Source: Conoideocrella luteorostrata
Lineage: Eukaryota; Ascomycota; Sordariomycetes; Hypocreales; Clavicipitaceae
Assembly: GCA_032433595.1 (NCBI GenBank)
Contig: JASWJB010000004.1
Location: forward strand, 1 to 64,000
Length of the DNA: 64,000 nt
Direction of reading: 5' to 3'
This document shows, piece by piece, positions 6,481 to 63,603 of this stretch. The notes below the pieces were generated by a model. The model was not told the origin of the DNA, made no database searches, and worked only from the letters and a program-made list of their open reading frames with translations. Numbering within the stretch: the first letter of the stretch is position 1; each line of letters opens with the position of its first letter. The position numbers and the translations under genes were made by a program.

Positions 6481-6483
6481 ATG

Positions 6484-32710: not shown

Positions 32711-34100
32711 TTAAGATGGCTTTAAATAGACTTTTTCCTTGAGCCCCTTCACAATGCCCTCGATTGTGTCCGCCGCGTAGTCGTAGTCTTCTAATCCAAG
32801 ATACACCTGAGCGCTTATCCTCACAAAAAATCTGTTTCCAATCAGGAACAACGGCATTGATGTCTTATAATGATAAAGAACTGTGCCAAGCATCCACTCC
32901 ATCGCACTGTTGATCTCCTCCGGTGGTAACACAGTATCCGTCTCTTTGGCTCCGTCGCCTTTCATGCCAAGCCACACCGGCAACGCGATGTTAGACAGCG
33001 CACAATTAGTCAGAGTACCTTTTGCGTTCTCCAAGACGCAAGTGCCAAGACGCTCGGCAATTCTTTTACTTCCATCCTTGTTCAAAGTGGTCAAATACTG
33101 CATAATATTTTCCTCGCCCCCGAGAACATCGCGGCGATACGCAATGGCGTCTTTGACAGTAAGCCACGCTGACACGTCCTTTGTGCCTACAAACTCAAAG
33201 TTCTTCACAAAGTATTTGGACAGATCCGATGTCGGCGCAGATGCTCGTTGGTCTATCGATAGATATCCACGACTGGTTGCCAGGGTGGAAGTCAACAGAT
33301 GCTGGTTCCGCCGCGGTACATAGAATATGGAACAAGAGTGCGGAACAAACAGCCACTTATGGCAGCTCGATACCAAAAAGTCTGGGTCGACCTCGGCGAG
33401 ATTGAGCTTCACCATTCCAACGCCTTGTGCGGCATCGACCATGCTCAGAATACCCAGCTCTTTGCAAGCCTTGACCATGGCCTGCCAAGGGAATAGACCT
33501 GCTGGCTGAGAGGAGACCAAGTCGAATACGCATATGCGTGGGGTCTTGCTCGCGGCGTTGACCGTCTCCACCGCTTCTTTGAAGCGACTCAGAATATCTT
33601 CATCCTCAATTGGATATTCAATGTGAATTTGCTGGGTCGATACTTTGCCGGCGTGGTGGTCAATGGTAAACTCAATCGCCTTTTTAGTGATGTCGTAGAT
33701 CGTCGAAAAGTGTAAGATTACGTCGTCACTCTCCCAATGGAGGCTTCTAAACACTGTGCTAAGGCCTTCAGTAGCATTTCCAAGAAGAACAAGATTCTCA
33801 AGCGGCGCTTGTACAAGTTCTGCTACGGCAGCTCTTGACTCCTCAACAAGCCTCGGATACTCAAACCACATGAATTGATCTGGACATGACAACGCCTTAT
33901 CTTGGTACTCTCTTTGCTTTAACAAGATGGTCTTCGGAACAGTTCCAAATGAGCCTAAGACATGACAGAATTAGTGTTTAACAGCCCAAAGTAAAGAGGC
34001 GACATAAGTACCATGTTTGAGAATTCCTCTTACCGTGATTCAAGTTCGTCCATGACGAGTCTAAAGGGAACTCTTTTTTAAGATTGGCTCCAAACTCCAT
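32711..34100 (-). CDS. Class V PLP-dependent enzyme (isopenicillin-epimerase/Egt2/LolT-like)
   Basis: Two exons, 34100-34034 and 33954-32711, encode 436 residues. The intron was placed so that the conserved NHGSFGTVP N-terminal motif (residues 21-29) is rebuilt across the junction. The PLP-binding aspartate lies in DAAQGVGM (D196) and the Schiff-base lysine in SSCHKWLF (K222). The group includes bacterial isopenicillin-N epimerase-like proteins, the ergothioneine C-S lyase Egt2 and the loline enzyme LolT, a PLP Mannich-type cyclase. Sequence alone does not choose between C-S lysis and ring-forming chemistry. The gene is head to head with the MFS gene (715 bp apart) and shares a promoter element with the terpene cyclase locus, which favours a biosynthetic role over housekeeping. 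A second PLP enzyme of the LolC/Fub7 type at 57-59 kb makes a loline-like pairing attractive. Confidence 0.85.
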
Positions 34101-34447
34101 TTTGACAGTGCCTTTGATGAAGCGAAGCCTGATTTATTCCTTTGTGTACCGCGCAGGTTAGTCCTGCCGAGGTAGATTGTGTCTCTTTTTATCCAGTCTG
34201 TCGTCTGCTGTGTTATCTACTTGTCATTTCTTCTTCTCGTAGCACACACAAGTGGTTTTCCCATGACACAGCCGCCGCAATGTAACTATAGATATGGAAT
34301 ACGTTGCTCCGTACTTTTCGGACTCTTTCCTTTCAGTACAATTTTCCGTTTCGGACAATAATCGTGCCACGCCCCCACCACATTTGGAGCGGTAGCGCTT
34401 CGTGTGCCCGAACCTGAAATCAACACCACTTTTGGCCCAAGTCTTTG

Positions 34448-34471
34448 TCGGATACTTCCACATTTGGGCAA
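34448..34471 (+). promoter_or_regulatory. 24-bp element shared with the cyclase/SDR promoter
   Basis: TCGGAT, one variable base, CTTCCACATTTGG, one variable base, CAA. The same 24-bp element, with only these two differences, occurs at 50513-50536 between the terpene cyclase and SDR genes. It lies in the 715-bp divergent promoter between the class V PLP gene and the MFS gene. The CGG-containing start fits a Zn2Cys6 regulator half-site. Confidence 0.55.
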
Positions 34472-34814
34472 TGCGACGAGGAACGGCGCACGACGTCGCG
34501 AAAGCCAGCGAGTCGGCACGCATGTCCAATACTTGTGTTCGTTGCAAAGCTCTCAGCAGCACGTGGATTTATTTTCGACACTAGTATGCGTTCTGGAATC
34601 GTTCGGACAAGGGGCGTCGTTGCGTGGAGACGGCGTGCTGTATGTGCTTGCTTGCTCCTGTAAGCAGCCACTGGGAACTACGCTGTGACTGATAGAATCG
34701 ACAAAAAGCGTAAACATGTACTACTTCGTATGTGCCAGCATGAAATGTGTCACGCACAATTTATTTCAAAATTTCCCGTCAATCATTATTTGAAGTGATT
34801 AGCCGACATTTGCA

Positions 34815-36663
34815 ATGTTGCCCGCGACAGTGGGGAAGTTGTACACTGCAGACTTGGGGATAGCAAAGTTTGAACTAAGTGATTCGACGATCCCAGAGCC
34901 ACGCCTCTCCAAAGATGCCTCAGACTTGCCCCCGTCCTCAGCCGATTCCCTTGAAGAAAAGAAACGATGCTTTTCATCGGTTAACTATGTCGGATCCCTT
35001 GCAGCTATTGGTCTCGCTGGTGTGGCCTGTATTGGTGGCTTCTCCTTGATAGCTCCGGTTCTCTCTTACATCAACCAAGATATTGGACCCGATCCCAATT
35101 CTGTTTTGGTGTCTTTATCCAAAAATTTAACCCAGGCGGTTATGCTGACCATCGTGGGCCGTCTTTCAGACCTTTTTGGGCGTCGCTACTGCCAGATTGG
35201 CGGCACGGCACTGGCTCTGATAGGCTGCATAGTCGGCGCGCCGCAACAAACATCAACACGCTTATAGGTGCCAACGTGCTCATCGGACTTGGCTCCCCGA
35301 CACAGGTTTCTTTCCCGTATCTCATCGCAAAGATAGTTCCCATGAAACGGGGCTACCTGGCGTCCATCTACATCTACACGCTGCTGATTCCGGTATCTGG
35401 CGTCTCTTCTATCGTTGCGACTGCCTTGGTAAATAACACCTCGACCACGTGGAGGTCAAGCTATTTCCTCATTATAGCCATTAATGTCGCCGCCTTGACC
35501 CGCTGGGTGTTGTTTTATCACCCTCCGACCTGGGACGACTTGGCCGAGATTACTATGGGTTCGGCAGAGAACAAGACCACCATGCTGAAGCAAATCGATT
35601 ACGTTGGACTCTTCTTGCTCTCTTCGGGGCTCTTGTTGTTCTTGATGGGCCTGTCTTGGGGAGGGAGCGTGTATCCATGGCAATCTGCAGGTGTGATTTC
35701 GACGATGGCTATCGGTGGACTCCTCTTGGCGGTTTTGTCCTCTTTGAACTCCGGCTGGATAGGACCCGATCCTTGGTACCGATGGAACTGTTCAAAAACC
35801 TTCCAATGGGTTGCGGCTGTTGGCACGCTATCCATGGCGGCTAGCATGTACTACGCATTCAACATTGTATTCCCTCAGCAAGTAGACGTTCTGTACTCCA
35901 ACGTCAGCCCAAGTAGACAAGGCTGGCTTAAAATGCGTGATATGTGGCCCTCCTTTACTCGGTCAGATCGTTACGTGTCTGTTCGCTAACAAGATTGGGA
36001 AAATTAAGTACCAGTTAGTGGTTGCCGCCGCCGTTGGCGCCTCGTTCTATGGCGGTAAGTTTTTTTTTTTTTTTTGTTGTTGTTTTTGGAAAACAAAAAA
36101 ACAGCCCTATGCATAGAATTGCCTGCTAATGACAGAAAACCACACAGCAAATGCTTGCGTTACCATAACAAATATGAACACAATCATCGTTCTGCTCTGC
36201 GTTGGTGGATTTGCTCTGGGCTGCCCTCGCGCTCGTGTCGCTGTCAGTAACGCTGAAGGACCAGCGCATAATTGGCACCGGCCTTGGCGTCGCTAGTTCT
36301 TTGAGGATGGTCATTTCGACAAGCTCAGCTACCATATATACCGCTATTCTGATTAACAGGCCATCGACAATTCCCGCGACAGTGTCGGGGGCATTGATTC
36401 AGGCTGGGCTTCCCAGCGCTTCGGTTGCGAGCTTCATCGCCACTGTCAAGTCAAATCCAGACCAGTTTGCTACCATCCCGGGAGTGTCTGATAGGATCAT
36501 TAATATTGGCGTAGAGGCATTCAAGTTTGCAAATGCAAAGGCGCAATCTACCGTCTATCTCTCGACCATTGCTTTTAGTGATTTGGGCGTCATCTTCAGC
36601 TTGCTCACTCCCGATATGGAGTCGAAGCTGACCGACAGTGTGATGACGAGACTTAAAGTATAG
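34815..36663 (+). pseudogene. Disrupted TRI12-like MFS efflux pump
   Basis: The protein is recognisable from end to end as a DHA-type major facilitator of the TRI12 family: a hydrophilic N-terminus, then membrane segments, the GRLSDLFGRRYCQIGG loop, NINTLIGANVLIGL, PMKRGYLA, CVICGPPLLGQIV and the LKDQRIIGTG motif near the end. However, the frame changes three times with no usable splice sites: near 35241-35250 (in a GGCGCGCC stretch), near 35929-35936 (in an AAAA run) and near 36200. One real intron, 36055-36147, with a long poly-T, lies between the second and third breaks. The last frame ends normally at 36663. Intact long neighbours such as the ABC exporter argue against general sequence error. 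The gene is therefore probably dead, and I would treat it as a broken product-export or self-protection pump. Confidence 0.75.
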
Positions 36664-36952
36664 CCCTACTGCCAGACTTTTATTGTACTATGAGGAGCTA
36701 CGCAGAGGCTACATTCTTGTGAAATGGTCTAAGGAGTGCGTCAAATCGGCCGCCGGCGTGCTCGTACCAGATGTAATTGTAGATTCAGATAGATTGCCAT
36801 TGGCACGCGTGTAAACAATACAAGTAAAAACCTTCAATAAGGTTTCTGATCTCATTTTCTGATCTTCTAACGGCTATGTTAAAGAAAAAATTCTCTAAAA
36901 TCTATAGATCAAAGCTACAAGCATTGAGCTGCATCTATGTACTGTGGTCCGG

Positions 36953-38673
36953 CTAGCTCTTCGCTCCTTCGACGCGCTTTCTGAACCGCAACTCGTATGT
37001 GTGATCTTGGGCTGCCATAATCTCTACATGAAAGTTGAGCGGACGATCTCGACTATAGTCTTTGCAGAGGTCGACATCATAGTTCTGCAAAATCTGCACC
37101 AACAGCACTTTCAGTTCGGCAGAGGCAAAGAAGCGACCGGGGCACGCATGCCGACCATGTCCTGCGACCGTGTCAGTTTTCGTTTTGTCGCAAAAACATC
37201 TTGAGAACTCTTAGTGCCACATACCAAAGCTTAACGCATCTTTATTCGCGCTTGCAAATTGGTACTTTTCGTCCCCGTGCTCTTTTCGCAACTCGTAAAA
37301 TCGCAGTCCATCGAATTTCTCGGGCTCATGCCAGAGCTCGGGATCCTTGCTCACGCATCCCGCCGATGCCGCCAACGAGGTGCCAACGGGGAGCTCAGTC
37401 CCATCAGATAACTTCATCGGCTTCAGAACCTTGCGATTGGTCGAGACCATCGATGGAGGGCTCACTCGCTGCACCTCTCTAAGGAAGCTGTCCATTTTCT
37501 TCAGCTTGAAAAGGGTCTGCTTCGTAAGAACTCCTGTGCCACCCTCCTCTGCTAGCACCTGCTCCATCTCCTCCCTGAGCATGGGTATGTATTGCGGAAA
37601 CCGAGCCAGGTCGTAAAGGGTGTGTGCTAGTTGGCCGCCTGTTGTGTGTATTGCTGCGACATTGACGACAATGTGCTCGTTCGCCTGGAAAGCCATGTCA
37701 TGGGACTTGCCATTTGAGTTGTCGATGAACCATTGGATCATATCCTCAGGCTTTTTTAAGTCTGGGTCGTCTTGCATTGCTTGCAGCCGTGCATCAATCA
37801 GTGGCTTGAGTATTTGTGCCACCCGCGTTCGATAGTACTGGACGCGCTTTGTCTGTGGCACAATGTACTGCATGATGGGCCATGACCAGGACGGATACTT
37901 CCACATCATTGCCGCACCAACAAACGAATCTATCGTGGCATTAATGGAGATGTCGATCCTAGCAAAACAAGTATTGTTAGCTTCCTACTCACTCAAAGGC
38001 CCGTCATGAAGTCCGGGCCGACCTTGAAACATACCATTCCTTGTTTCTGGACAATGGCAGGCCAACAAAGACTCTTCCCGATATTAGGGCGATCATTTGA
38101 GTGCATGCACCGTAAACTGTCGTCCTAAACCAGCCGTCGCCATCGAGTTCTGCGCCTTCCAGACACTGCTCCGTTGCAAACCGGGCTTCTTCCTGCATGA
38201 CGGGCAAAATGTGAGGCAGCCCGCGAGTCAGGTCTACTTTGACCGAGTGTATCATGGTTGAGCTGTTTGACGCAACGGCGGTATATTTGCCCAGGTATCG
38301 GTCGTACATCTCGCGCCGAAAACTAATAGTTGATTCTGGCTGCGCTTTGAGGTCGTCCAGCATGTCTGCGGGCACAATGACCATGGGCTTATTAGAAGTC
38401 GGGATCTTGTATAAGCGTTTTTTGTGCTAAGATGTCCTTTGCTGTTAGCTTTGGCATGGTCAGTAAACTGTACAAATTCTCGCATCGAACCTCATTGTAG
38501 CCCCTCTTCATAATTTTATGAAAATCACCGCCTTCTTCTGTCAAGGTGGGAACCGCAAGCTCGTCCGGCCTTTGTGCCAATCCCCGGACATACGACACGA
38601 GCAGGACCAACAACGCCGCCAGACCTATGGCGGGCGTCCAGCCCGGGCTTATGATATCGGAAAGACTAATCAT
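36953..38673 (-). CDS. Cytochrome P450, CYP68-like (copy A)
   Basis: Four exons: 38673-38491, 38426-38035, 37958-37225 and 37161-36953. They give 505 residues, all phases consistent. The start ATG (38673) opens a membrane anchor ([16 protein letters not shown]). The segment [19 protein letters not shown] after the first junction, the [15 protein letters not shown]-helix, the REVQR ExxR motif and the haem loop [14 protein letters not shown] are all visible. The haem cysteine codon lies in the last exon. The pattern is that of the CYP68 group (gibberellin GA14-synthase/ent-kaurene-oxidase-like in old annotations), commonly terpene oxidases in fungal clusters. The I-helix has TTGGQ where many P450s have A-G-x-D/E-T, a known variation in this group. 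It shares its haem region closely with the P450 at 59593-61523, so the two are likely paralogues. Confidence 0.9.
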
Positions 38674-39267
38674 TTTTGCCGCGTAACCGAGAAATTCTGT
38701 CAAAATCGATACATCTAACGATGATAGGAGTTCCAAACTCGGTGGCTACAAATGTTTTGCTTTCCGACGAGGCAGGCTCTCTCAGAGTTCAAGTGCTTCA
38801 ATCGTTGCTGATGCACCCACGGCCTTGCAACCAATGACGCCTGGTCTACGGCATGCGCTGTTTCCAAATGTAGTAATCCCTGGTCGTAGTCCGGTGTGGC
38901 AATTGGGTTCAAGGCTGGAACTGGTAGGATTGTGGGGTGCCTTCGCGTAAAGCTTCTTTGCGCAAAGTGAGTCTTAGCAGATGGTTCAAAGGTGGCTTCG
39001 AGCGCCGTAATTATGCGGACGATGTCATGTTAATTACATCACCTCACAGCAGGGTATCAGTGTTTTAAGATGCCTTATCACAATTGACAACACTGGTTCA
39101 TGATTTTTATTTGAGCCGGCAGATTTACACATCTTGTAAGCCTACGTATTTCCGCACTGACCAGCCTCATGAACTTGTTGTTATATCTATCTCTATCACG
39201 GAAGACCCCAGCCGCGGTTAAGGGAGAAATTGGCTATAGTCGACCCAAGACATTACCATTGTAGAAA

Positions 39268-40936
39268 CTATTCATGTATCAATACTCTTATACCTTTGGT
39301 ACCTTCTTTCGGCGTCGGCACAAATCGATCGTAGTAAATCTCCACATCGTCAATTGACGTCTCAAACAATGACATCTTGGTTCCGAGCCGACGGAGAAGT
39401 AATCCCAGACAGAGATACACTTCCGCATATGCTAGACTATGCCACAATTAGCAATTAACCTCTGGTTAGTAGCAGCGATACAGAGCGTTTTTATATATCG
39501 TCATGCACTCACTTGATACCTATGCACTGCCTACTTCCGCGAGAAAAGGAGAGCAAGTACTTGTCGAGATGGTGATGTCGCTCGCCGTTCTCGCTCAACC
39601 AGCGCTCCGGTCGGAACACGTACGGCTCTGGGAATAAGTCTGGATCTATGTGGACCAAGGTTGCGGTCATGCCAACTGGCGTCCCCTGAGGAATAGTATA
39701 TTCCGTCCGTTTTGTAACGCCTCGGCTTTCAACCTGTGATACAAATCGGAAGGGAGCATCAGGGTTTATCCTCTGCAGGCGGGTGCTCACGCCGTAGGAC
39801 AAGCGCAGCCCTTCACAAATGACCGCGCTGAGATACGGCAGTTGCTCCAGTTCGCTCCAGCGACAGCGCTTTTCAACATCGGCAATGTTTCCCACCAATT
39901 CCTTCTGCAGGTTTGCAAAGACGCGAGCATTGTTGAGCACGTAAAAGAGCGCGACGGAGAGAGTCCACGCTGTGGTCTCAGTACCCGCGCCAACGACAAT
40001 CTGACCCTCCTGCCACAGCCGCTCCAGCTTCTTCTCCTGATCCGGGAGGCTTCCTGTCAATAGTTCCTGAAATATGGTTTTGTTCTGGCCCTTTTGCTCC
40101 TCGCCTCGCTCAATCTTCCGCTGTGCCTCTCGGATCTGCCTGCGAATGTCTTCCTGGAACTTGACATAGACAGCAGCCTCCGGGTTGAGCCGCATGACCA
40201 CTGACTCCGGGAGACTATTCATGAGCGTGATGAGAAACGGGAACTGCTTGATCCAGGGGCCCATGTCGCTGCCGGCAACAATCGCTCTGTGGAAGTTGGG
40301 CTCAAACGTGGGCGAATCAAGAAAATTGTAGCTCTTTGAAAATGCATACTCGGTCACAATATCGGTCGTCATGCAGCTGAAGGCCATGTTCATGCTGACT
40401 GGCTCGCCGGTGCCGGCATGCAGCCGAAGCTGCGAAATGAGTTTCTCAATAGCGGTATGAATGATGGGCTCCAGCTTTGTAACCGATGCCTTTGAGAAGA
40501 ACTGGTTGAGAGCTCCCCTTCGCAAGCGGTGCAGATCATGTCCTGGCGTCCCGAAAACGCTGTCTGGGATGCCGAACTGAGAGCAGAAATAGCCGTATTT
40601 GTCTCGCTTCTTCCCGCCCCCAGCATAGAGGTCGTCTATGAAGCTTGGGCTATTGACGTGTAGCTCATTTGGGCTGATGCGCACAATCGGTCCGTACTGT
40701 TCATGCATGCGCTTGATCTCGAAGGTGTATCGGCCACGCTGGATGGCATCATAGTAGAATTCGTACCATACTGTCAGTGCTGCGATTCGTGGACCAGGAT
40801 ATCTTACTAGCGGATGGAAGAAGAGACGGAATATGCCCAAGGCAAAAAAATATAAGAAAAGAGAGAATGCTGAGACTGCAAACGGGTGCTCCATGATTGA
40901 GCCTGCAAGGGCTTTTAGCAGTGATGTTCTTCCCAT
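39268..40936 (-). CDS. Cytochrome P450, TRI4/CYP58-like
   Basis: Two exons, 40936-39513 and 39436-39268, encode 530 residues. The junction restores the CIGINLAYAEVYL helix after the haem loop SFSRGSRQCIG. The N-terminal membrane anchor (FAVSAFSLFLYFFALGIF), FHPLVRYPGPR hinge, AGTETTAWT I-helix, CEGLRLS ExxR motif and FRPERWL are standard. The C-terminal LFETSIDDVEIYYDRFVP segment is typical of the fungal trichodiene-oxygenase-like family, whose members often oxidise sesquiterpenes several times. The gene sits between the other CYP68-like P450 and the ABC exporter on the same strand. A role in oxidising the cyclase product is a reasonable inference. Confidence 0.9.
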
Positions 40937-41438
40937 TTTTGGGTGTTTTTCACAGGGTCAGCTGTTTCAACAACAAAAACTATGGCTTGATTACGCCATC
41001 AAAATTAGGCATCGTGAATAGTTTCTGCCTAAGCCCCCAGCTGACCAATTGTCTAGCGGTTTCGCGCACCAAGTACGGAGTATCTGGCTATCAAATTACA
41101 GTGGCCCTTGCGGCTGATTGACGCACAACCCTGTTGAAGGTGAGGACGGACTAGTCCGAGACATCAACCCGTATTAGGCAAACCCCGGCACGGCAGGGAA
41201 CGGAGACGTCGAGGACAGGACAACACAGGCGGGCCACAGGGAAGAAACATTCACATCAGGTGGCTGAGGTCCCTCTGGCTTAGCAGTAGTGACCATGCTG
41301 CAGGGCCCCTGGCGCTGCGAACTGCAGTAGCAAATTAGCACTTTTAAGAGTGATACAGGTTGCAGCTCGAGCTTAGGTCATAGAGCATACTACTATTATT
41401 ATTCAAGCTATTGTGTACCAATTTCTTCAGCTAATATA
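40937..41438. promoter_or_regulatory. Promoter region of the TRI4-like P450 and 3' region of the ABC gene
   Basis: About 500 bp with no gene. A GTACGGAGTA motif lies near 41072. No element identical to the 24-bp shared motif is visible here. Confidence 0.3.
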
Positions 41439-44400
41439 TTATTTGCTCGCTTCTTCAATGCTTTGTAGTTGTACCAGTTCGTAGTATCTGCCTCCTAATG
41501 ACATCAACTGTCGATGTGTTCCGCTCTCCACAATCCGGCCGCCATCAAGGACTGCACTCACGATCAGCTTGTTGCCTAAGAAGGGAAGGGAAAGGTCTAC
41601 CAGAACGGAACATAATATCTTACCATGTATGCAGTCTGCCCTTTGCACAGTACTAATGCGATGCGCGACGGCAAGCGTAGTTCTGCCCTGGACGGCCTCG
41701 TCCAAAGCCGCTTGCACAACGCGTTCGGACTCCGAGTCGAGGGCAGACGTGGCCTCGTCTAGCAGTAGAATTTTGGGGTCCCGTAACAGAGCCCTTGCAA
41801 TGGCAATTCGTTGTTTCTGGCCCCCCGACAGTAACGTTCCTCTCGCTCCCACTTGCGTCTCGAACCCGTCACTGTAAGCAGAATAAAAGTCAGAAAAGCA
41901 GACAGAACAAAGCCAGAGACTTTCAACTCACGGAAGCGAAACAATATAATCCAAGATATTGGCGTCTTTGCAAGCCTGCTGTAGTTTCTGCTCTGAGATG
42001 TTGGTGTTGACGTCCAAAGCAATGTTTTCCCTAATCGTGCCCTCGTACAATGTGGGCATCTGGCCAACTAGCGCCAATTGGCTGCGATACTCGTTCAGAT
42101 TCCAATCCTTGATATTCTTTCCCCCTACAGCTACAGAACCTGTCTCCGGATCGAAAAACCTCTCGAGGAGAGACACAACAGTGCTCTTGCCACTACCACT
42201 CGCGCCGACCAGAGCGGCAAAATGCCCCGGCTGGACGGTCAAGCTAATGTCATTCAACACCAGATGATCCTCCCTGTTCGGATAGCGAAAAGTGACATTC
42301 CTCAGCTGAATTGATGAGTCCATCTTGCCAGCGCCGTCACCACCTTCGCTTCTTGGGTCGATGAGGATTTTGCGGTCGTGCAAGTCTTTGATGGCACGAG
42401 CAGCGGCGCCAGCTTTGCCCATATCCGGGATAAATGTGAAAATGGCCCCTGCTGAATACGATCCGGCGACAAGGGCAGTGTAGCAAAGGTAAAATTGGAA
42501 CATGGTGTAATGTTCCTGCGCCACCAAGCGGCTGCCATACCAGAATGCTAGCGCAGACGACAAGAAGACGGCAGACTGCGATAAAGCAAACAGGAAAGAG
42601 GACTGAGCAATCAATTTAAGCGATTGCCACCTGTTGGCGATCAGTATTTCGCGGTAGTCGTTTCGCACTTTCTCTTCCAGCGTCAGGGCGGCTACCGTCC
42701 GTATATTGGTGCTGTACTCGCAGGCGAAATGGGCAGACGCCTCGTGAACTTTCCTGGCTTGAGCTTCCAGGAGTCCCTGGGATTTCAGCTGCATTATGCC
42801 AGCTCCGAAAAGAACGGGAATGGTGCTCATACACACCAGTCCGAGCTTCCAGCCTACAGACACTGACAGAATGATGCCAGCGACGATTATTGTCAGGATG
42901 ATCAATATGGTGCCCAGGGTGACGCCTCCCATGCCTTGCAGCTGCGTGGCGCTGTGAGACAGCACAGTCGATAATTTGGCAGTCGAGTAGGCCGGAAGGT
43001 AAAATGAACCCATATCTTGGTGCAGAATAGTGTCAAATGTCTGACGGCGAGCTTCATATGTCAGGTGTTCCGAGTAGAAGACGAAGCAAATGCATTGACC
43101 TAGCAGCCCGATGACGGTCGTGCATCCGATTACGACGTACATCAAGCTCCAGAAATTGACTTCGCTGCGAAGATAGCCATACTCGGACGGCTTTGATGAC
43201 ATGGCCTCCATGATTTTGGCTAAAAATACCGATTGTCTGTAGCGGTGGTCAGTTGTGCACATAGACAATAAATAATGTGGAGTTGGAACTGGCTCAGGTA
43301 CTTACGTGGGATGACTTCCGCCGGCAACGATAGAGAATATCAGTCCGCCACAGATGGGCAGTACCATGCGCTTGTTGAGATTAAAACAAAACCTAGCTAG
43401 CTGCCACGCCGAACTTGATGGCCGTGATGGTTTCTTACTCTCGGTCCAACCTACGCCTTCTGTCTTGATAGACGTGTTAAAACGTTCACCCAAAGCCAAC
43501 TTATCTGAAGATATGTGTTCAGTCATAGACTCGTCATCCTCATCCAGGTGGTCGCACCCATTGCTTCGTCCAGTCAAGAACCCTTGCTGCCTGGTTAGAT
43601 CGTAGTACAGCGATTGTCGCTCCAGCAGCTCTTGATGGGTGCCCTGCTCAACCACACGACCAGCCGACATGACAATGATGTTATCCGCATGTGCGATTGT
43701 AGAAAGACTAGTCCATGACATCAATACCACAAATCTTTGTTTAATTTTGCTTCATGTTTGGCGACGTACCGGTGTGCAATCACAATTGTTGTGCGACCTA
43801 GTGCCGCATTATTTAAGGCTGTTTGAACCTCTCGTTCGGCTTTCGAATCGAGAGCCGAGGTGGCTTCGTCAAGTAAAAGAATCTTGGGGTCTCCTATGAT
43901 AGCTCTGGCAATGGTAATGCGCTGCTTCTGTCCACCAGAGAGCAGAGATCCTCCATTGCCAACATGGGATTGGAACCCATCTGGCATCGCCATGATGAAA
44001 TCATAAGCGTTGGCCGTTTTCGCCGCTGATTCGACCAGACGCTCGACCTCTTCCAGTGGCTTATTCTCTTGTCTGGTCCCCACGAGGCCATAACGAATGT
44101 TTTCAAACACGGTTGTCGAGAAAAGTGTTGGCTCTTGGCTAACGAGACCGATTTGCTGTCTTAGCCACGTAAGATTTAGGCCGGTAAGGTCGTGGCCATC
44201 GATGGCTGGACACCAGTCAGTTATATCAGTGGTTTACACTCTTTGGTGTCATACATACATATGTTTCCTTTTACTGGTTCGAAATATCGCTCCAGAAGGG
44301 AAATGACGGTACTTTTGCCGCTGCCCGATGGTCCGACAATAGCCGTGGTCTTTCCAGCGGGGAAATGCATGCTAACCCCGTCCATGACGACGACTCCCGG

Positions 44401-45683
44401 CCTGGAAGGATATACATGCCGTATATCTGTCAGTGAAACATCTCCCCGAAGGCTGTCGATCTTGTGTCCCGTCTCCAAGCCCGGATCCGTAGGTGACTGG
44501 CGACAAATAGCCTCGGACAGTTTCCTCGTGGAGGTAAGACCTTTTACTATCGCCTGCACATGGGGCGCAACGTTGCCCAGCGCAAAAGCCCCCGTGATTG
44601 TGGCAAACATGATTGTCAAAATGGCAGAGATGTCAATCTGGCCGTGAACAAGGTATCGTGAGCCCTGCCAAAAGGCAAGCCCATACGTCCACCAAATCGT
44701 CGCGTTCATAATAGCCATCATTACACCGAGAGCAACACCACTGCGGAATTGGTACACCCGTGCCACCGCGACATGTTTGTCGAACTTGCGCAGCAGAGAC
44801 GACTGCATGCCGAAAGCGCTGACCGTCGCGATCGAGCTGATAGCCTCTTCTGCAATGTTAGCTCCATGGCCGTACGAGTCCTGAGCTTTCTGCGCGTAGT
44901 TGACCATAAAAACCGCACCGATTCCCATGGCGAGCATGATGAGCACTACGGACGGCAAGAGCACCAGGGCCAGCCGCCAGCTCTTGATGAAGCTAATGAC
45001 AATGGCGCCACAAAAGTTGGAAACCGCCGCCACAGTAAAAGAGGCCTTGGCTGTGATGGCATCTTGAATCATGTTGGTATCCGTTGTGATGCAGTGATTG
45101 ACTTCACCCACGCCGAGGGTGTCAAAGAAGGCAATGTTCTGCCGGAGGATCGCGTCAAGGTAGCGCTGTCGAAGCCTTTGGACTATGCGTTCGCCAGCAT
45201 AAGTGAAGCCTACAATCGCAATGAAGCTCGCTACAAGATTTGCCGCCGCCAGGTACACGAACAGCAGACTGAATTTGGTGACGTTTGAGTTGAACGAGTC
45301 CAGAGTGGTTTCGCCGACGAAGAAGCCTCGGAATGACTGACCCATGTTACCTAGAAGCAGCTGCCATTCGACCACCACTAACATTAGCCTAGTCGAAATG
45401 CCATCCTCATTCTCACCATTCAGGGCTCGCTTACATCGGATATCGGGAAAACCAGGCCGCTTCCAATGGACGCAATGAGGCTGACGAGAAGAATGGCCAG
45501 ATCTGACTCGGTAGCGCAGCTGAGCAGGAACTTGAAAGGCGTTGGAAACTCCTCTGCTCTTGCCAGCTGCCGGTCCAGAATAGCCAGTTCATTCTCTTCC
45601 AAGACGATCGCAGCATCATTAGTTCCTTTACTGGCCTGAGCAGGATGCAAAGCCTGCAACTCAGTCTCGTCTGTGTAGCTCAT
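41439..45683 (-). CDS. Full-length ABC exporter (ABCB/MDR type)
   Basis: Seven exons: 45683-45435, 45360-44259, 44205-43770, 43707-43306, 43236-41932, 41871-41624 and 41551-41439. They encode 1284 residues, with reading-frame phase agreeing at all six junctions. The order is TMD1, NBD1, TMD2, NBD2. Walker A is GPSGSGKST in NBD1 and GASGSGKST in NBD2. Both NBDs have LSGGQKQR signatures, [12 protein letters not shown]alker B and a switch His. The start at 45683 is the first ATG; an upstream in-frame TTG is not used. Proteins of this type pump hydrophobic compounds out across the plasma membrane with ATP. Located among the cluster P450s and intact while the MFS pump is broken, it is probably the only working exporter of the product or the self-protection pump. 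Confidence 0.93.
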
Positions 45684-57186: not shown

Positions 57187-59037
57187 TCAGGCTTCAAGAG
57201 TGACAGCCTCTGCGTGAAGCTCCTCAGATACTTCCTGAATTGTCTCTCCTGTGGCCCTCTCTTGTATACCAAAGTAGAGCACTTTATTCAAAGAGCCTCC
57301 ACTCAGAACACCTTCCGGGATGGTAGCAAATGCCTGATCTAGATCTTGAATTATATCCGCAACATCCTCGGTACCAATAGACAAACGAATCAGCTCCTAT
57401 AAGAGAACGTTAGTTGCAATACCCAACAGTTTCTAACATATCCACACTTACCTCTGTGATTCCAGCATTTATACGGTCCTTCTCTGACATGATGGCATGT
57501 GTGGAACTCCAAGGGTGGGTTGCCATGGTCTTACAGTCCCCAACGCTAGAGCCAAAGTCTGTCAGAGGGGAGAATTCTGGAATATTTGAATGATCAGTCT
57601 ACTCACTTTGTCATGTTGGAAACCAACCGAAGTGCATCCACAAAGTACTTGCTGCCTGCTGTGCCACCCTTGACACCAAATGACAAAACACCACCAAACC
57701 CTCTGCGCAGGTACTTCTTTGCTATTTGGTGATATTTGTCGGTGACGAGACCTAACGGTTTTGCATATTAGCTTTCCAGCCTATTCTTCAAGCAAGGTTG
57801 TCTACTTCAGAGGCAATGTAAAGACTCACCGGGATAGTTGATCCAGTCAATTCGCGGATGCTGGGCCAGAAACTCGGCCACCCGTAAGGCGTTGAAAGCT
57901 ATCCGGTCGCATCTCAAGCTCAGCGTCTCTATGCCAAGGAGAATCTGCTGCGCAGCAAACGGATTCATAACAGATCCCACCTCCATGACGACTTCGATGC
58001 GGAGTGCAATCGCGAACGCAATATTTCCAAATGCGCTCGCATAAGAAAACTCGAGAGGGCCGTCACTCTTAGCCGTGAGGTGCGGAAATTTTGCCGCCGC
58101 CTTCATCCAGTCGAATCTGCCAGCGTCGACAATGACTCCTCCTACTGTCGTGCCATGTCCACCCAGCCACTTTGTAGCAGAGTGCACAGCAATATCTGCT
58201 CCATGTTCAATGACAGGGCACCAATAACCGCCAGCCCCAAAGGTGTTATCGACCTGAAAAATACGTTTCTCTGTTAGTTACATTCGTAACAATAGCGAGT
58301 TTGGCATGTGAGGTAGACTTACAACAAGCGGAACAAGATTCTCGTGACCAATATCAGCAATGGCGCGGAGATCAGGAATGCTGATTCGCGGATTGCCAAC
58401 AGTCTCGACCAAGATCATCTTCGTCCGCTCGTCAATTAGAGCTCTGTAGGACTCAGGGTCGTCGTCCGAGACCCATCGCACGGAAATGCCCATCCGCGGT
58501 AGTAGCGTCTTGAACATGCTGTAGGTGCCTCCATAAAGATTTGTCGAGGAAATAATATTGTCGCCCGAGTGTGTTAAGCATAATACCGTCTGGAATATGG
58601 CAGACTGTCCAGATGCGGTCGCGACGGCTGCTGTGCCCCCTTCCAGTGCCGCTACTCTCTTCTCCAAGACTTCTACTGTGGGCTATGCACCGCAAAATGG
58701 GTGGTCAGTTTGAGACATAGACTCGTGTTGACAGTCGAGGCCGCACTTACATTAGCAATGCGCGAGTAGACGTAACCGGCTTCCTCATTGCTACAGACCT
58801 TCCGCGCATGCTCGCTATCCGTAAAGACATATGACTACATTAAAATAAAAAGTCAACATGTTTCTTAGACCTATTTCCTGAATGGGATCAATTACTTACA
58901 GCAGTTGCATAGATTGGCACGGCCCTCGCTTTCGTTGTTGGGTCGGGCTTGGTGCCAGAGTGAATCTGCCGTGTGTTGAACTCTCGAGCCGACTCGGTCT
59001 TGACATCGACCTTGAACGGCACAAATGCATCACTCAT
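57187..59037 (-). CDS. Cys/Met-metabolism PLP enzyme (O-acetylhomoserine gamma-replacement type)
   Basis: Exons: 59037-58900, 58834-58751, 58682-58323, 58253-57830, 57751-57607, about 57558-57452 and 57396-57187, giving about 488 residues. The family is clear: RQIHSG at the start, SRIANPTVEVLEKRVAALEGG, ATASGQSAIF, TNLYGGTYSMFK, ETVGNPRISIPD, VDNTFGAGGY and the PLP lysine in HSATKWLGGHG (K222). Family members replace the acetoxy group of O-acetylhomoserine with a sulfur, nitrogen or carbon nucleophile. LolC (loline), Fub7 (fusaric acid) and FlvA (flavunoidine) are specialised fungal examples. The protein is about 50 residues longer than ordinary sulfhydrylases, with an acidic tail. One problem: the junction near 57607/57558 leaves the frame one base out (donor phase 2, but FGSSVGDCKT needs phase 1), so a frameshift or an unusual splice must be present. 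The gene is divergent from the P450 at 59593. Confidence 0.8.
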
Positions 59038-59592
59038 GATGAAAACTTCCAGATTCGGACTAACTAATCAATAGATAAGTGCTATAACAAATTACAAGTT
59101 AAATTGATGGGTTTCTCAAGTTACTGTAGAGAAGGATGCTTGCATAGAGGCTCATTCAGTGAACCCACAAGGGCGGCCCAGGGGAATAATGCCTGACGTC
59201 GTTTTATTGCGCTTTAAGGTAACTAACTAGGTAACGCTATAACTTACCAACTAAAGATCACATCTGCTAATGCCAGTCCGCACTGATCTGGAGAGCTGAG
59301 TCGCACCGTCCGGGTGGCGTGGGGTCGGACATTGACGAATTCGGTTGGAGTCCGGTCAGCGTGGAGGGAGATGCAGGACTTTGGGAACTACGCCGAAATC
59401 ACATCGGATCCTAGTCTCCATGTTTTGTAAGTCGTCTTGATCTGATTGGCTTGAGCCTGGCTTCAATTTCTTAGGTTCATTCACACTCTTTGTTGCCCTC
59501 TGTCACTGAACTTTTCGAGACCAAAGAGTTTGTGTATTCGATGTGCTGGAATTTAGTGAGACAAAGACGACCTCACTTCCCTTCCAACAGAC
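59038..59592. promoter_or_regulatory. Divergent promoter of the gamma-type PLP gene and a P450
   Basis: 555 bp between start codons. It contains TCGGAC (59325), TTCGGTTGG (59340) and TCGGAT (59404-59409) but not the full 24-bp element. These CGG sites could be targets of the cluster regulator. Confidence 0.35.
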
Positions 59593-61523
59593 ATGTCAAC
59601 ATCCGCAGTGCTGGAGCAATGGCTTCACCATGTCACCCAAGCCCGACTAAATAATAGCGTAAACACGGCCTATATTCTGCCAACTGCAGCATTAGGCATT
59701 GTTGCCATTTTTATCATAACAAACTTGCTGACTCCGAAGCAACGATACGTTCCCGGGGTGCCCATCATAGGCGGCAGCGACAAAGCTTCCATCAAAAAGA
59801 ACCGCATCCGATTTATACATGATGGCATGAATATGCTGAAGGAGGGCTATGAAAAGGTAGCGCAAAATGTTTTTCTCTTCTTCCCGTCTACATTCTGTGC
59901 TATCTACTCGACTGCTGACATATCAACAAGACGAAGGGCGGTAAATTTTACGTCCCCAGCAAACTTGGGGAGCGCTTAATGCTTCCAGTCAGGTACCTGG
60001 ATGAGTTGAAGTCGGCACCAATCCACGAGGTAGACTTCGTGGCTACGTTCATTGAGGTAAGGCACTAGCTGTGTACTCTATCGCCGATGTGCTAATGACG
60101 GTGCAAGATGTTTGAAGGCAAATACACGACAATGGGAAGTCGATCAACTCTTCATCCCCGCGTCGTTCGCGGCCAGCTCAATCGCAATTTATGTACGTCT
60201 CATAAACCACCTTATCGTGTTTCCTTCCCGTTCTCTGATCATTCCACGCAGGGAAAGTAATGGACGAAATTCAGGAGGAAATCCGCGACGCGTTTGATGA
60301 CGCATTCCCAGCCTGCGAGGGTAAGTGTACATCCACAGCCCCATGGGGCGGTAACCCATCACTATATATCCAGTAACAAGAAATGCTGACTTTCAATTTC
60401 CAGACTGGACTGAGGTAGACGTAGTCGATCGCATCACCCAGATTGTAGCCCGGGTGTCCAGCCGCATGTTTGGCGGTAAAGAGTTAAGCAGGAATAAGGA
60501 ATGGGTCCAATCGTCTATCGCCTTTGCGATTGATGGTTTCATCGGCGCCCAGGCCATAAAGAAGTTTCCTGAGTTCCTCAAGCCTGTGGCAGCGCGATAC
60601 ATCCCCGCCATTCAGAACATCAAAAACCATTACGCCGCGGCGGAAAAAGCTGCCATTCCGCTTATTGAGCGGCGACGGGCTACTGGCGAAGACGCTCCAG
60701 ATTTGCTGTATTGGATGGATGAAGATGCGCAGGGAAGCGAAAAGGACCCAGCGTTTCTCGCGAGTATTCTGCTCAAGGTCAGCTTTGCTGCTATCCATAC
60801 AAGCGCCGCCGCTCCCAGTCAACTTCTTTATGACCTTTGTGCAATGCCCGAGTACATCGATCCTTTGCGGGAAGAAATCAGCACAAACTTGAACGATTGT
60901 GGGACTTTATCCCGCCAGGGATTCCAGGGCTTAACAAAGCTCGATAGCATAATGAAAGAGAGTCAAAGATTTAATCCACTTCTTCTCAGTAAGCCCGTCT
61001 CAACTGAGCCTTGTCTTTTTTAACAAAAAAAAAATACCAAGTACACTAACGTCTCGACGCAGTAACCTTTGAGAGAGTCGTGACGAAAAACTACCGCCTG
61101 TCAGACGGGCTAGTCATTCCCGCCAATACAACGATCGGCATTCCAACACATGCTATCTCGATGGATGCAGACTTGTATCCTGAACCAGAAAAGTTCAAAG
61201 GTTTTCGCTTTCATGACTTGCACGAAGTGTCTAGACAGCAGCAGCAAGACGATGTGAAAGGCGCAACTGACAAGCAACGTTCTGCTCCCTCTGTAGCCTA
61301 TGCTGCGTCCCATCCGGCCAGCATGGCTTTTGGATACGGTCGACATGCATGCCCAGGTCGATTCTTTGCTTCTGCCGAGATCAAGGCCATCATGGTGTAC
61401 TTGTTGATGAACTACGAGTTCAAGTTTCCAGAAAATAAGCCAGTGAGGCCACCAAGTTTGCAAGTTGAGACGCAAAATCTACCAAATCACGAAGCAAAGA
61501 TTATGTTCAGGCGACGAAGATAA
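59593..61523 (+). CDS. Cytochrome P450, CYP68-like (copy B)
   Basis: Six exons: 59593-59856, 59931-60056, 60108-60192, 60252-60320, 60404-60988 and 61063-61523. They give 529 residues with consistent phases. The N-terminal anchor (AALGIVAIFIITNLL) is followed by VPGVPIIGG, GGKFYVPSKLGERLMLPVRYLDEL, MFEGKYTTMG, the FAAIHTSAAAPSQLLYDL I-helix, KESQR and the haem loop [18 protein letters not shown]. The pattern matches the CYP68 P450 at 36953-38673, and the two differ by only two residues over [14 protein letters not shown] and its flanks, so they are likely ancient duplicates with different sites of oxidation. It is head to head with the gamma-type PLP gene. Confidence 0.9.
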
Positions 61524-61944
61524 TTTGGATTTATTTGTACTTTCAGAAATATGTTCAATTCTTAGATTCTATATCAACCATTTATAGTTAAATCTAATTA
61601 CAGAACACAAGTCCTCTACATCGAAAAGCCTGGTTCCACAGTATACTTGCTCAATCACTCTCGTATCTGCCGTTCATGTAAGTAATTCATCCTCGATGAG
61701 CGAGAGCACTTGGAGGAGCCTCATAAACAACAATGACTCTGTGCTAGTCTTTCCTAGCCAAGTGAGAACCCTTCAAGAACTATTTCATCACGGTCTTCGC
61801 CTCGATATAGGTTGAACAATTACATCACAAGCTACCCAGAGGAGCCACTTTAAACAAAGAATAGTATAAATATTTGTTAAGTTACAAACATAGTATGTAA
61901 AGAAGTCCAATTAATTCGGTTCTGGTCGTACAGTGGCCCCTATC
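61524..61944. other. 3' region between convergent genes
   Basis: About 420 bp with no gene. The P450 (plus) and the acyltransferase (minus) converge here. Confidence 0.4.
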
Positions 61945-63603
61945 CTAAAGTTTAGAAGAGATCGCCTTTGTAGAGAGTGCGGAGCGGGATTTACCAGATG
62001 GCAACAGCCGCGGATCCTTAATCAGACGTTCCATGTCCTCGGTACAGATTCGAACCGAGATATCTACTCCATTGTCCGTCCAGTAAGACGAAGATGACTG
62101 GCCCGGCTTCTTGCCGAGAGCTGGCGCCTCCTTGATCAGTACATTGCCATCCATGTCGGGGACTACACCCTCAGCAAATACACAACTCGAGCCTAGTCCA
62201 AAGTCAATGTCGTAGATGCCGGTACGTCCCCAGGTTGTAACTAAAATGTGTCGTTTGCCTAGAAAAGCTTGCCATATGCGTTGGGGCGACTTCTCGTAGG
62301 CCACACTGTGAACATGTGCGGCCATGTTGGAGGGGTCAACGACTTTGCGAAGCGTCTCACGAACCTGGGTCGCAACAGTGTTGAGTCCTAAAGGTGCTGC
62401 GACATCAGATCCCGGCAGTTCAATATTCATCATAACGATGGGAGAGCCCAAGAACTTCTCACTAAGCTGGAAAGACGGGCGGACTCCGTACACCAAGTCA
62501 CAGTGTACAGGACCAGCATCGCCACCGAGGTTGCGAGCTCGTGTGATGCAAGACCAGATATGAGCTAGGACGGCATCATGCCTACTCAGCTTTTGCGAAA
62601 CACCTTCATTCGCTCGTTCCCAAAGAATGTCGACTTGTTCACAAGTTAGGTGAATAATATAGTTAGACACAGGAGTCGCGAGATTCCATTCCGACCATGG
62701 CATCACTTTACCAACGGGCTCGATTTCTTGGGTCGCAAAAGGAGCGGGGATCTGGAATGGCCAAGGACAAGTAGGTGCAGATGCCCACCAGTCGTATCGG
62801 TGCATAGGGAGGCTCTTTGCTTTCTCAATCAATGCCTGGTCCGGCTGGCTAGCGTTTATGTCGCCGGCCGCTTGGTTATCCAACAGCGACGGCTCGAAAA
62901 GAGGGGATAATGAAGGTACCGCTTCACCTGCCAGGAATGAAGTGCTAACCTTTGCCCAGTCGCGAAGCAAATACATGAAGCCAGCCGCATCAGCCATCGG
63001 ATGTGTGCTCTTGAGCGCGAGAACAAAAGCTCCACAGCCCAATTGAGTGACTTGAATCGCCAACAAGGGCCTTAACTCGCCAACATCGTCCTTCACATTG
63101 GGCTGGAGCGGATTTGCAAGTGCCACAGCAGGCATGAACTTCTGAAGGGGAACCGAGTGACAGTTCCATAGAGGATGCTCCGTTGTACGATTCTCGGGAT
63201 AGATTGATTGGAGTGTCGTCGAGCTCCTAGCCCATACAAACTCGACACCAGGATCCTTGGGGGTTCCATAGTGTGCGTAAATACGCCCAAACCGTCGGGC
63301 ATGCGCCGGAAAATCTTTTCCTTCTAGCGGTATGCTTCCGTCAGTGCTATTGACAATCTTCAACTGTCCACACCATTGGGGGTATGCTTCGAGGGTTGCT
63401 GCCAGGGAGTTACGCATGTGATAGCCTAATAAGCTACATTTGTCGGCTCCTGCAACCTGAGGTCGCTTATACAGCCATATGGCACTTCCAGCAGCGAAAT
63501 CGGCCGTCGTACAATCCAGAAGAGAAAGAGGAACGGCCTTTTCTCCATTGGCCTTGGGCCCGAGCCGCGTCGCTTCAACGACGGAGACCTCGATATCCGA
63601 CAT
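61945..63603 (-). CDS. BAHD/trichothecene-type O-acyltransferase
   Basis: Single exon, 552 residues. The catalytic HXXXD motif is HPMAD (H201 and D205), and the structural DFGxG motif is DFGLG (residue 467 on). Both are intact, so the enzyme should be active. The fold belongs to the acyl-CoA-dependent transferase family that includes trichothecene 3-O-acetyltransferase and plant BAHD enzymes. It transfers an acyl group from CoA to a hydroxyl or amine of a small molecule in the cytosol. In this cluster it probably esterifies a hydroxyl introduced by a P450. Its length is somewhat above the family norm (about 450-500 residues). Confidence 0.88.
   Translation of the reverse strand: MSDIEVSVVEATRLGPKANGEKAVPLSLLDCTTADFAAGSAIWLYKRPQVAGADKCSLLGYHMRNSLAATLEAYPQWCGQLKIVNSTDGSIPLEGKDFPAHARRFGRIYAHYGTPKDPGVEFVWARSSTTLQSIYPENRTTEHPLWNCHSVPLQKFMPAVALANPLQPNVKDDVGELRPLLAIQVTQLGCGAFVLALKSTHPMADAAGFMYLLRDWAKVSTSFLAGEAVPSLSPLFEPSLLDNQAAGDINASQPDQALIEKAKSLPMHRYDWWASAPTCPWPFQIPAPFATQEIEPVGKVMPWSEWNLATPVSNYIIHLTCEQVDILWERANEGVSQKLSRHDAVLAHIWSCITRARNLGGDAGPVHCDLVYGVRPSFQLSEKFLGSPIVMMNIELPGSDVAAPLGLNTVATQVRETLRKVVDPSNMAAHVHSVAYEKSPQRIWQAFLGKRHILVTTWGRTGIYDIDFGLGSSCVFAEGVVPDMDGNVLIKEAPALGKKPGQSSSSYWTDNGVDISVRICTEDMERLIKDPRLLPSGKSRSALSTKAISSKL

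What the first reader, a model, noticed from the sequence alone, without database searches (positions are those of the whole stretch)
32711..63603. Eremophilane-type sesquiterpene cluster carrying a loline-like pair of PLP enzymes
One block holds an aristolochene-synthase-like cyclase, three to four P450s, an SDR, an acyltransferase, an ABC pump and a Zn2Cys6 regulator. It also holds two PLP enzymes of the kinds used together in loline biosynthesis: a gamma-type enzyme (LolC/Fub7/FlvA-like, O-acetylhomoserine coupling) and a class V enzyme (LolT/Egt2-like). Known eremophilane clusters that I can name do not carry this pair. The combination predicts a terpene-alkaloid hybrid in which an amino-acid-derived ring is made by the PLP enzymes and joined to an oxidised eremophilane, or alternatively a sulfur-containing terpene made by a sulfhydrylase plus C-S lyase.
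Basis: partly seen in the sequence, partly recalled or inferred. Interest (0 to 1): 0.88.

Follow-up and report, generated by a model that had tools for sequence, protein, structure and literature searches.

The report
Fungal terpene cluster with amino-acid enzymes
A scale-insect-killing fungus carries a gene cluster that looks built to make a bicyclic terpene and to modify it with an amino-acid-handling enzyme, and since that enzyme sits near the same kind of terpene cyclase in several other fungi, the pairing may mark an uncharacterised family of nitrogen- or sulphur-bearing terpenes.

Summary
The window is contig C4 of Conoideocrella luteorostrata. One block (32.7 kb to about 66.1 kb, 2 kb past the window end) holds an aristolochene-synthase-type cyclase, five P450s, a head-to-head SDR, an acyltransferase, ABC and MFS pumps, a Zn2Cys6 regulator and two PLP enzymes with intact PLP lysines. 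Neither PLP enzyme looks like the housekeeping copy. The gamma-type enzyme belongs to a 39-row clade (SH-aLRT 100, stem 1.4) apart from homocysteine synthases and FUB7. Cyclase and gamma divergences match (r = 0.84, 9 pairs). The class V enzyme is a diverged Egt2-family paralogue, grouped only with three nameless sequences among 120 listed of 1308 hits; nothing shows it travels with the cyclase. So 'loline-like pair' is too strong; 'eremophilane synthase plus dedicated gamma-PLP enzyme' looks conserved. Best reading: an eremophilane carrying a C4 amino-acid unit from O-acetylhomoserine; main rival: a sulphur-bearing eremophilane. Product unknown.

The parts
32711..34100 (-). Class V PLP enzyme, Egt2 family, diverged paralogue (exons 34034-34100, 32711-33954; 436 aa)
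   Evidence: deposited as QQS21_000397
34716..36663 (+). MFS transporter, TRI12-like (approximate six-exon model, 526 aa)
   Evidence: Pfam TRI12 9e-11 on the first exon ORF; model
36953..38673 (-). P450 A (505 aa model, [10 protein letters not shown] haem motif)
39362..40936 (-). P450 B (FSRGSRQCIG haem motif; ends of the model uncertain)
41408..45683 (-). ABC transporter with two ABC halves (model 1249 aa, some exons uncertain)
   Evidence: Pfam ABC_membrane and ABC_tran in the ORF at 41928-43301; model
46168..48097 (-). P450 C (496 aa model)
49115..50283 (-). Aristolochene-synthase-type sesquiterpene cyclase, 344 aa
50732..51720 (+). Short-chain dehydrogenase, head to head with the cyclase (302 aa model)
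   Evidence: Pfam adh_short 8e-33; 57% identical to the SDR part of Colletotrichum SDR-cyclase models P0257/P0279
55400..56848 (+). Zn2Cys6 regulator (approximate extent; intron 55465-55520 inside the zinc cluster, read by eye)
   Evidence: Sub-threshold Zn_clus match E 0.016 to the second half of the motif; cysteine pattern across the intron; the gene predictor gave no usable model
57187..59037 (-). Gamma-type (Cys/Met metabolism) PLP enzyme, seven exons, 484 aa; member of the cyclase-linked clade
   Evidence: deposited as QQS21_000406
59591..61591 (+). P450 D (FGYGRHACPG haem motif; 5' and 3' ends of the model uncertain)
61945..63603 (-). BAHD-type acyltransferase, 552 aa, HPMAD at 201 and DFGLG at 467
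   Evidence: Pfam Transferase 9e-28. The fifth P450 (P450 E) follows at C4:64188-66085, outside the window

Best explanation
A biosynthetic cluster for an eremophilane sesquiterpene that carries an amino-acid-derived unit. Farnesyl diphosphate is cyclised to aristolochene or a close eremophilene (shown by family only). P450s and the SDR oxidise the decalin (inferred). The dedicated gamma-type PLP enzyme takes O-acetyl-L-homoserine, forms the vinylglycine ketimine and lets a nucleophile other than sulphide add at the gamma carbon, giving a C4 amino-acid unit (inferred from family chemistry and a changed set of conserved residues). In this fungus a second, lineage-specific class V PLP enzyme may then act on the alpha carbon (decarboxylation or ring closure, as recalled for LolT and UstD). 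The acyltransferase decorates a hydroxyl and the ABC and MFS pumps export (inferred). The gamma-PLP plus cyclase core looks ancestral to a family of clusters in several ascomycete genera; the class V gene looks like a local addition.
For: Gamma clade of 39 rows split from homocysteine synthases and FUB7, SH-aLRT 100, stem 1.4. Pairwise identities of cyclase and gamma correlate, r = 0.835, 0 of 10000 permutations as high, n = 9 pairs with the window. The window enzyme keeps the PLP lysine, YSR, LYGG, DNTF and C-terminal Arg motifs, yet 21 residue positions are fixed differently from homocysteine synthases, FUB7 siding with the synthases at 19 of 21. The genome has its own Met17-type exon, 82.5% identical to an A. 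flavus CysD-like protein and 56% to the window enzyme. Gamma-substitution with other nucleophiles is precedented: CndF, Fub7, AnkD, proposed LolC (PMC10367076, passages); FlvA in a sesquiterpene alkaloid (PMC8902786, passages).
Against: No product is known and no expression data were available. No NRPS-like esterifying gene as in flavunoidine or aculene was recognised among the block's ORFs. 24 of the 38 clade rows have no same-species cyclase among the 120 listed of 316 hits, 3 have one only on another contig and 2 are not comparable, so linkage is not shown everywhere; the Cordyceps, Beauveria, Microsporum and P. chrysogenum members may do something else. The linked cyclases are not one clade (at least three places; fewest changes 7, with every row not shown linked counted as unlinked). 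The window enzyme still scores over the cut-off of the sulphhydrylase model TIGR01326. No convincing shared promoter motif was found.
Confidence: 0.5

Rival explanations
1. Sulphur-bearing eremophilane: the gamma enzyme stays a sulphhydrylase (or uses methanethiol) and supplies homocysteine/methionine-derived sulphur, and the Egt2-like enzyme cleaves a C-S bond, giving a thiol or methylthio eremophilane or a methylthio-acyl ester.
For: Both PLP families are C-S enzymes by ancestry: gamma scores 550 bits, over the cut-off of 495, on the OAH/OAS sulphhydrylase subfamily model TIGR01326 and class V is closest to the C-S lyase Egt2. A methylthio eremophilane, phomenone A, is reported from Penicillium sp. 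HDN13-494 as the first eremophilane with sulphur (PMC8878823, abstract and passages).
Against: 21 positions fixed in the homocysteine synthases are changed in the clade, and the scores on the narrower homocysteine synthase models fall below their cut-offs (those models are bacterial/archaeal). Phomenone A could arise by simple thiol addition (own judgement). Class V is not seen to travel with the cyclase elsewhere among the listed hits.
Confidence: 0.22
2. Self-resistance or supply copy: the gamma gene is a duplicated methionine-pathway enzyme kept in the cluster because the terpene hits homocysteine synthase, or to boost methionine supply.
For: It is a homologue of a primary enzyme (56% to the genome's own copy) with catalytic motifs kept. 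Sesquiterpene clusters with a resistance copy of their target are known (aspterric acid and its dihydroxyacid dehydratase copy; recalled, not looked up).
Against: The clade is one long-stem lineage shared across fungi, not repeated recent copies, with many fixed changes.
Confidence: 0.08
3. The class V gene is a bystander at the cluster edge (a duplicated Egt2-like gene sharing an upstream region with the MFS pump) and takes no part in the pathway; only the gamma enzyme does. (Compatible with the best explanation's core and with the sulphhydrylase part of the first rival.)
For: It is the outermost gene on the left, next to about 3.4 kb in which only short, low-scoring models were predicted; no cyclase-linked relative was found among the listed hits; no shared promoter motif.
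Against: It is not the housekeeping Egt2: it changes 25 of 139 conserved family columns, while the genome's other copy keeps 129 of 132, and it lies next to cluster-type transporter and P450 genes.
Confidence: 0.35

Closest known systems
PR-toxin cluster (prx/ari1), Penicillium roqueforti and P. chrysogenum
   Same: Aristolochene synthase, SDR, several P450s, acetyltransferase, transcriptional regulator (PMC10144355, passages and its Table 3)
   Different: No PLP enzyme among the 11 tabled ORFs; a quinone oxidase (prx3) was not recognised here, but was not searched for
[quoted passage not shown]
   Same: Eremophilane cyclase and three P450s; horizontal transfer from Aspergillus inferred by its authors (PMC11980549, passages)
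   Different: The terms PLP, pyridoxal and aminotransferase have no hit in the main text
Flavunoidine cluster, Aspergillus flavus
   Same: Sesquiterpene joined to an amino acid made from O-acetylhomoserine by a gamma-type PLP enzyme (FlvA) with an SDR (FlvB) (PMC8902786, passages)
   Different: Acoradiene as the terpene, FlvA fused to a dioxygenase, single-module NRPS FlvI for esterification; none recognised here
Loline (LOL) cluster, Epichloe
   Same: A gamma-class PLP enzyme (lolC) and further PLP enzymes (lolD, lolT) in one cluster (PMC3585121, passages)
   Different: No lolD-, lolO/lolE- or lolF-type domain found near this cluster; no terpene cyclase is listed among the lol genes shown
FUB7 (fusaric acid) and fungal homocysteine synthases
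   Same: Sequence family and PLP site; O-acetylhomoserine as donor is inferred
   Different: Separate clade; 21 fixed residue differences from the synthases, FUB7 siding with the synthases at 19
Egt2 and 8dl5 (UstD; name recalled)
   Same: Class V family with conserved Lys and Tyr
   Different: SNCHKW to SSCHKW, PRG to PHS, ACGK to ITKK and other changes

Membership tests
Aristolochene/eremophilene synthases | DDxxE and NSE metal motifs, close sequence relation to characterised enzymes | tested here: met
   DDLLE 113, NDILSWDKE 242; 408 bits to 2e4o
Aristolochene/eremophilene synthases | Product is aristolochene or eremophilene | not testable with these tools
   Needs an enzyme assay
Gamma-family PLP enzymes (OAH sulphhydrylase type) | PLP lysine in SATKW, DNTF, YSR, LYGG, C-terminal Arg; family profile | tested here: met
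   motifs in the window enzyme; TIGR01326 over cut-off; Y124, D196, K222 and R419 invariant in 24 aligned clade members
Primary homocysteine synthase (Met17/CysD) | Groups with the primary enzymes and keeps their fixed residues | tested here: not met
   Separate clade; 21 residue positions differ; a separate Met17-type gene exists on C152
FUB7 | Groups with FUB7 | tested here: not met
   FUB7 branches outside the 39-row clade (FUB7 is flagged there as a long branch, and no AU test was run)
LolC / LolT | Phylogenetic grouping with LolC and LolT | not testable with these tools
   No verified LolC or LolT sequence was returned; the '(LolT)' labels are source names
Loline cluster | LolD, LolO/LolE and LolF type genes present with LolC and LolT | tested here: not met
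   No PF02784, PF03171 or PF00743 match at E <= 0.001 in C4:1-94000; which Pfam domains stand for these genes is recalled
Egt2 orthologue (ergothioneine) | Groups with the lineage's housekeeping Egt2 | tested here: not met
   P0096 takes that place with Metarhizium, Epichloe and Ustilaginoidea; the window enzyme is in a 4-row side clade
Flavunoidine-type cluster | Single-module NRPS for the ester bond | tested here: inconclusive
   No NRPS-like ORF recognised in the block; the AMP-binding search scored only 14 of 155 candidates
PR-toxin-type cluster | SDR, aristolochene synthase, quinone oxidase, P450s, acetyltransferase, regulator | tested here: inconclusive
   All but the quinone oxidase seen; the quinone oxidase was not searched for

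The most novel reading that the evidence does not exclude
These clusters make an undescribed class of aza-annulated eremophilanes: the gamma-type PLP enzyme alkylates a terpenoid carbonyl compound (carbon nucleophile) with the C4 unit of O-acetylhomoserine, the new amine closes on the carbonyl to fuse a piperidine or pyridine ring, and in Conoideocrella an Egt2-derived class V enzyme has been recruited to work on the alpha carbon. The gamma enzyme would then act directly on a C15 terpene.
Probability: 0.2. Interest if true: 0.86.

Novelty: new variant of a known kind. Interest (0 to 1): 0.66.

Why it matters
Eremophilanes are common fungal metabolites, some of them toxic or antifungal. Nitrogen or sulphur in them is known but looks rare in the passages seen: PR-imine and PR-amide, one aldoxime, dendryphiellin J, as the only eremophilane hit from a fungus in a review of 391 nitrogenous sesquiterpenes, lactam dipeniroqueforins and methylthio phomenone A. 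A PLP enzyme clade tied to aristolochene synthases in Torrubiella, Aspergillus, Colletotrichum, Fusarium, Poronia and Tricladium as well as here gives a sequence tag for what may be a whole set of such compounds, and names the enzyme and co-substrate to assay. It would also show two recruitments of sulphur-metabolism PLP enzymes into one terpene cluster, if the class V gene belongs.

Tried and rejected
Housekeeping explanation for the gamma gene: rejected on the tree and on the separate Met17-type gene. Plain Egt2 orthologue for class V: rejected. Loline-type cluster: rejected. Shared regulator motif: a k-mer and dyad scan of nine upstream regions against 86 control pieces gave nothing convincing. 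No 4+4 dyad stood in 7 or more regions; the best word, ATGTTTTG, stood in 4 of 9 regions and 1 of 86 controls (p 1e-5, not corrected for the words tried). CGGN6CCG stands in three of nine (P450B, ABC, AT/P450E) and not upstream of class V or gamma; not tested against controls. My first exon predictor (dicodon) over-fitted and was dropped for a codon-usage one; that one put a false intron in the class V gene and failed on the regulator, so the hand model, equal to the deposited protein, is used for class V. Polyketide partner: the only ketosynthase match on C4 is at 226960, 160 kb away. The adenylation-domain search was not exhaustive.

Papers: 0 papers hold eremophilane + alkaloid + sulphhydrylase or aristolochene synthase + homocysteine synthase. 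One search listed 8 papers with 3 or more of its 4 terms; I looked at passages of two. One search listed 2 with eremophilane + PLP-dependent; passages seen, neither about such a cluster. Searches (4 listed; 10 listed) on gamma-type PLP enzymes: passages of four papers seen. led to passages of four papers. One search listed 15 of 25; one was looked into. None that I looked into reports an aristolochene synthase cluster with a gamma-type PLP enzyme. The library is open-access only, so absence from print is not established. No structure prediction or fold search was run. Fungal genome neighbourhoods could not be fetched; linkage rests on contig lengths, locus tags and accessions. LolC, LolT, CndF, FlvA and AnkD were not in the trees.
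Full report
Where it is. The three key proteins equal deposited Conoideocrella luteorostrata proteins (class V QQS21_000397; gamma QQS21_000406; cyclase 'Aristolochene synthase prx2'), on a contig of 375,044 bases, the length of C4 in the held assembly. The fungus is a scale-insect pathogen with a published draft genome; that paper reports 48 predicted clusters and names cephalosporin C and cyclopiazonic acid; this cluster is not described in part 1 of 2 of the text, which is what I read (PMC12352038).

What is there. By ORF listing, Pfam and gene models the block runs from the class V gene at 32.7 kb to a fifth P450 ending at C4:66085. It holds: class V PLP, MFS pump, P450 A, P450 B, ABC pump, P450 C, cyclase, SDR, Zn2Cys6 regulator, gamma PLP, P450 D, acyltransferase, P450 E. 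Four gene pairs are divergent and share an upstream region: class V/MFS, cyclase/SDR, gamma/P450 D, acyltransferase/P450 E. To the right follow genes that look unrelated to such a pathway (L009, L010; judged by eye). To the left is about 3.4 kb with only short, low-scoring models and then a ricin-B-lectin protein. The models for MFS, P450 B, P450 D and ABC are approximate, and the regulator has no full model.

The cyclase. It is closest among solved structures to aristolochene synthase 2e4o (408 bits) and carries both metal motifs. In a 121-row tree of its relatives it lies in a 12-row group (SH-aLRT 98) with sequences of Torrubiella hemipterigena, Aspergillus, Colletotrichum and others, away from 2e4o. 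Eremophilane chemistry is thus a family inference, not a measured product.

The gamma enzyme does not look like housekeeping. Its best solved relative is FUB7 (496 bits), then a homocysteine/cysteine synthase (470 bits). In a 61-row tree (window, 57 of the 119 other listed hits, three PDB sequences) it falls in a 39-row clade with SH-aLRT 100 and a stem of 1.4 changes per column; FUB7 and the 19 homocysteine-synthase-type hits used lie outside (quick search, no bootstrap, long branches flagged for FUB7, 8ovh, 7kb0 and Macrophomina). The genome's own Met17-type exon on C152 is 82.5% identical to an A. flavus CysD-like protein but 56% to the window enzyme. Comparing 32 clade members (window included; six short or near-duplicate rows and P0179 left out) with 80 other hits taken as homocysteine synthases (P0200 left out as a probable clade member), 21 residue positions are fixed differently, each at 85% or more within its group, and FUB7 has the synthase residue at 19 of them. 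The PLP lysine, YSR, LYGG, DNTF and C-terminal Arg motifs are kept in the window enzyme; Y124, D196, K222 and R419 are invariant in 24 aligned clade members. Several changes fall in the stretch TNVGDCKTMATHPWSSTHAIM, which in this family borders the substrate site (recalled). So the enzyme looks active but may have a changed acceptor pocket. It still passes the broad OAH/OAS sulphhydrylase model TIGR01326.

The gamma gene travels with the cyclase. Neighbourhoods of other fungi could not be fetched, but the protein tables give contig lengths, locus tags and accessions. In three species the two genes have consecutive numbers. Of the remaining 29, three have a listed cyclase only on another contig (A. 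pseudotamarii, Diplogelasinospora grovesii, Hypoxylon NC1633), two are not comparable (listed representatives from different strains: A. parasiticus SU-1, Neoarthrinium) and 24 have no same-species cyclase among the 120 listed of 316 hits. As a control, 0 of the other 81 gamma hits share a contig of 10 kb or more with a listed cyclase (only contig length was compared for these, some have shorter contigs, and 62 of the 81 were not placed in the tree). Linked members come from all three main subclades of the gamma clade, so the link is probably old. Over nine linked pairs, window included and the near-duplicate A. arachidicola dropped (for A. parasiticus the SU-1 gamma sequence was used), the identity matrices of gamma and cyclase correlate at r = 0.835, with 0 of 10,000 permutations as high; shared ancestry of the hosts could contribute. 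The linked cyclases are not one clade. The window gamma gene is 79% identical to A. parasiticus but 68% to Torrubiella and about 60% to Fusarium, closer relatives of its host (recalled), which suits horizontal transfer or old cluster paralogues. Two Colletotrichum gene models fuse an SDR to the cyclase; that SDR is 57% identical to the window SDR over 214-216 residues, so SDR next to cyclase is also found there.

The class V enzyme. It is an Egt2-family protein (409 bits to Egt2 5uts; 251 to 8dl5). The window protein departs from 25 of 139 strongly conserved family columns, including the residue three before the PLP lysine (N to S) and an RG to HS change; P0096 keeps 129 of 132. It is therefore probably a specialised paralogue. 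Its link to the pathway rests only on position: apart from this genome, the only shared contig with a listed cyclase is a 14.5 Mb Hirsutella sequence, which says nothing, and one gamma/class V match (95,337 bases) joins a Peltula protein and a nameless one and looks like chance.

How it probably works. Gamma-family enzymes turn a gamma-activated amino acid into a vinylglycine ketimine and add a nucleophile at the gamma carbon; fungal examples with unusual nucleophiles are CndF, Fub7, AnkD and, proposed, LolC (PMC10367076, passages), and FlvA makes 5,5-dimethylpipecolate from O-acetylhomoserine, with the SDR FlvB, for the sesquiterpene alkaloid flavunoidine (PMC8902786, passages). I infer the same here: a C4 amino-acid unit placed either on a small carbonyl compound and then joined to the eremophilane, or on the eremophilane itself. 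The class V enzyme could then act at the alpha carbon. The BAHD-type acyltransferase could acetylate a hydroxyl, as prx11 is thought to do in the PR-toxin pathway (PMC10144355, passages). Without an NRPS-like gene recognised in the block (the search was not exhaustive), an ester bond as in flavunoidine or aculene (PMC10720950, passages) would have to be made otherwise.

Rivals. A sulphur route is real competition: both PLP families come from sulphur metabolism, and a methylthio eremophilane has been reported (PMC8878823). A self-resistance copy is unlikely given the long-stem clade. Class V as bystander is quite possible.

Compared with what is known. The PR-toxin cluster shares the terpene side and has no PLP enzyme among its 11 tabled ORFs; the deoxyphomenone paper has no hit for PLP terms. 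Flavunoidine shares the idea but not the cyclase type, the fused dioxygenase or the NRPS. Lolines share gamma and further PLP enzymes but none of the other loline gene types tested is near. Nitrogen-bearing eremophilanes as such are not new. I found no paper describing an aristolochene synthase cluster with a gamma-type PLP enzyme, in an open-access library only and looking into only some of the listed papers. I therefore call it a new variant of a known kind: a terpene plus amino-acid hybrid cluster with a widely distributed pairing that I did not find described.

Noticed in passing
C4:64188-66085 (L009 188-2085): A fifth P450 (487 aa model) continues the cluster just past the window end.
   Followed up: yes
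   Followed up: partly
G000 C271:13223-14483: The genome's second Egt2-type gene (taken to be P0096, QQS21_009937), likely the housekeeping copy.
   Followed up: yes
P0138, Akanthomyces muscarius LMH87_003798: The closest gamma relative (89% over 316 aa) is a shorter 324 aa protein; no cyclase of that species was among the 120 listed, so its cluster may be reduced, misannotated or simply not listed.
   Followed up: no
P0257 and P0279 (Colletotrichum): SDR and aristolochene synthase annotated as one protein, probably two adjacent genes merged in annotation.
   Followed up: partly
window 28439-29176: Small protein with a ricin-B-lectin domain and a glycine/asparagine-rich tail, left of the cluster.
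   Followed up: no
window 6458-8556, 14607-16744, 19117-20439, 26917-27711: By eye only: multicopper-oxidase-like, amino-acid-permease-like, P450-like and nitroreductase-like ORFs in the left half; no search was made.
   Followed up: no
P0003, P0006, P0023: Three nameless class V proteins group with the window enzyme (P0003 and P0006 were read and share its SSCHKW/PHSC signature); the contigs (2.2, 191 and 81 kb) could show whether the gene sits in a terpene cluster elsewhere.
   Followed up: no
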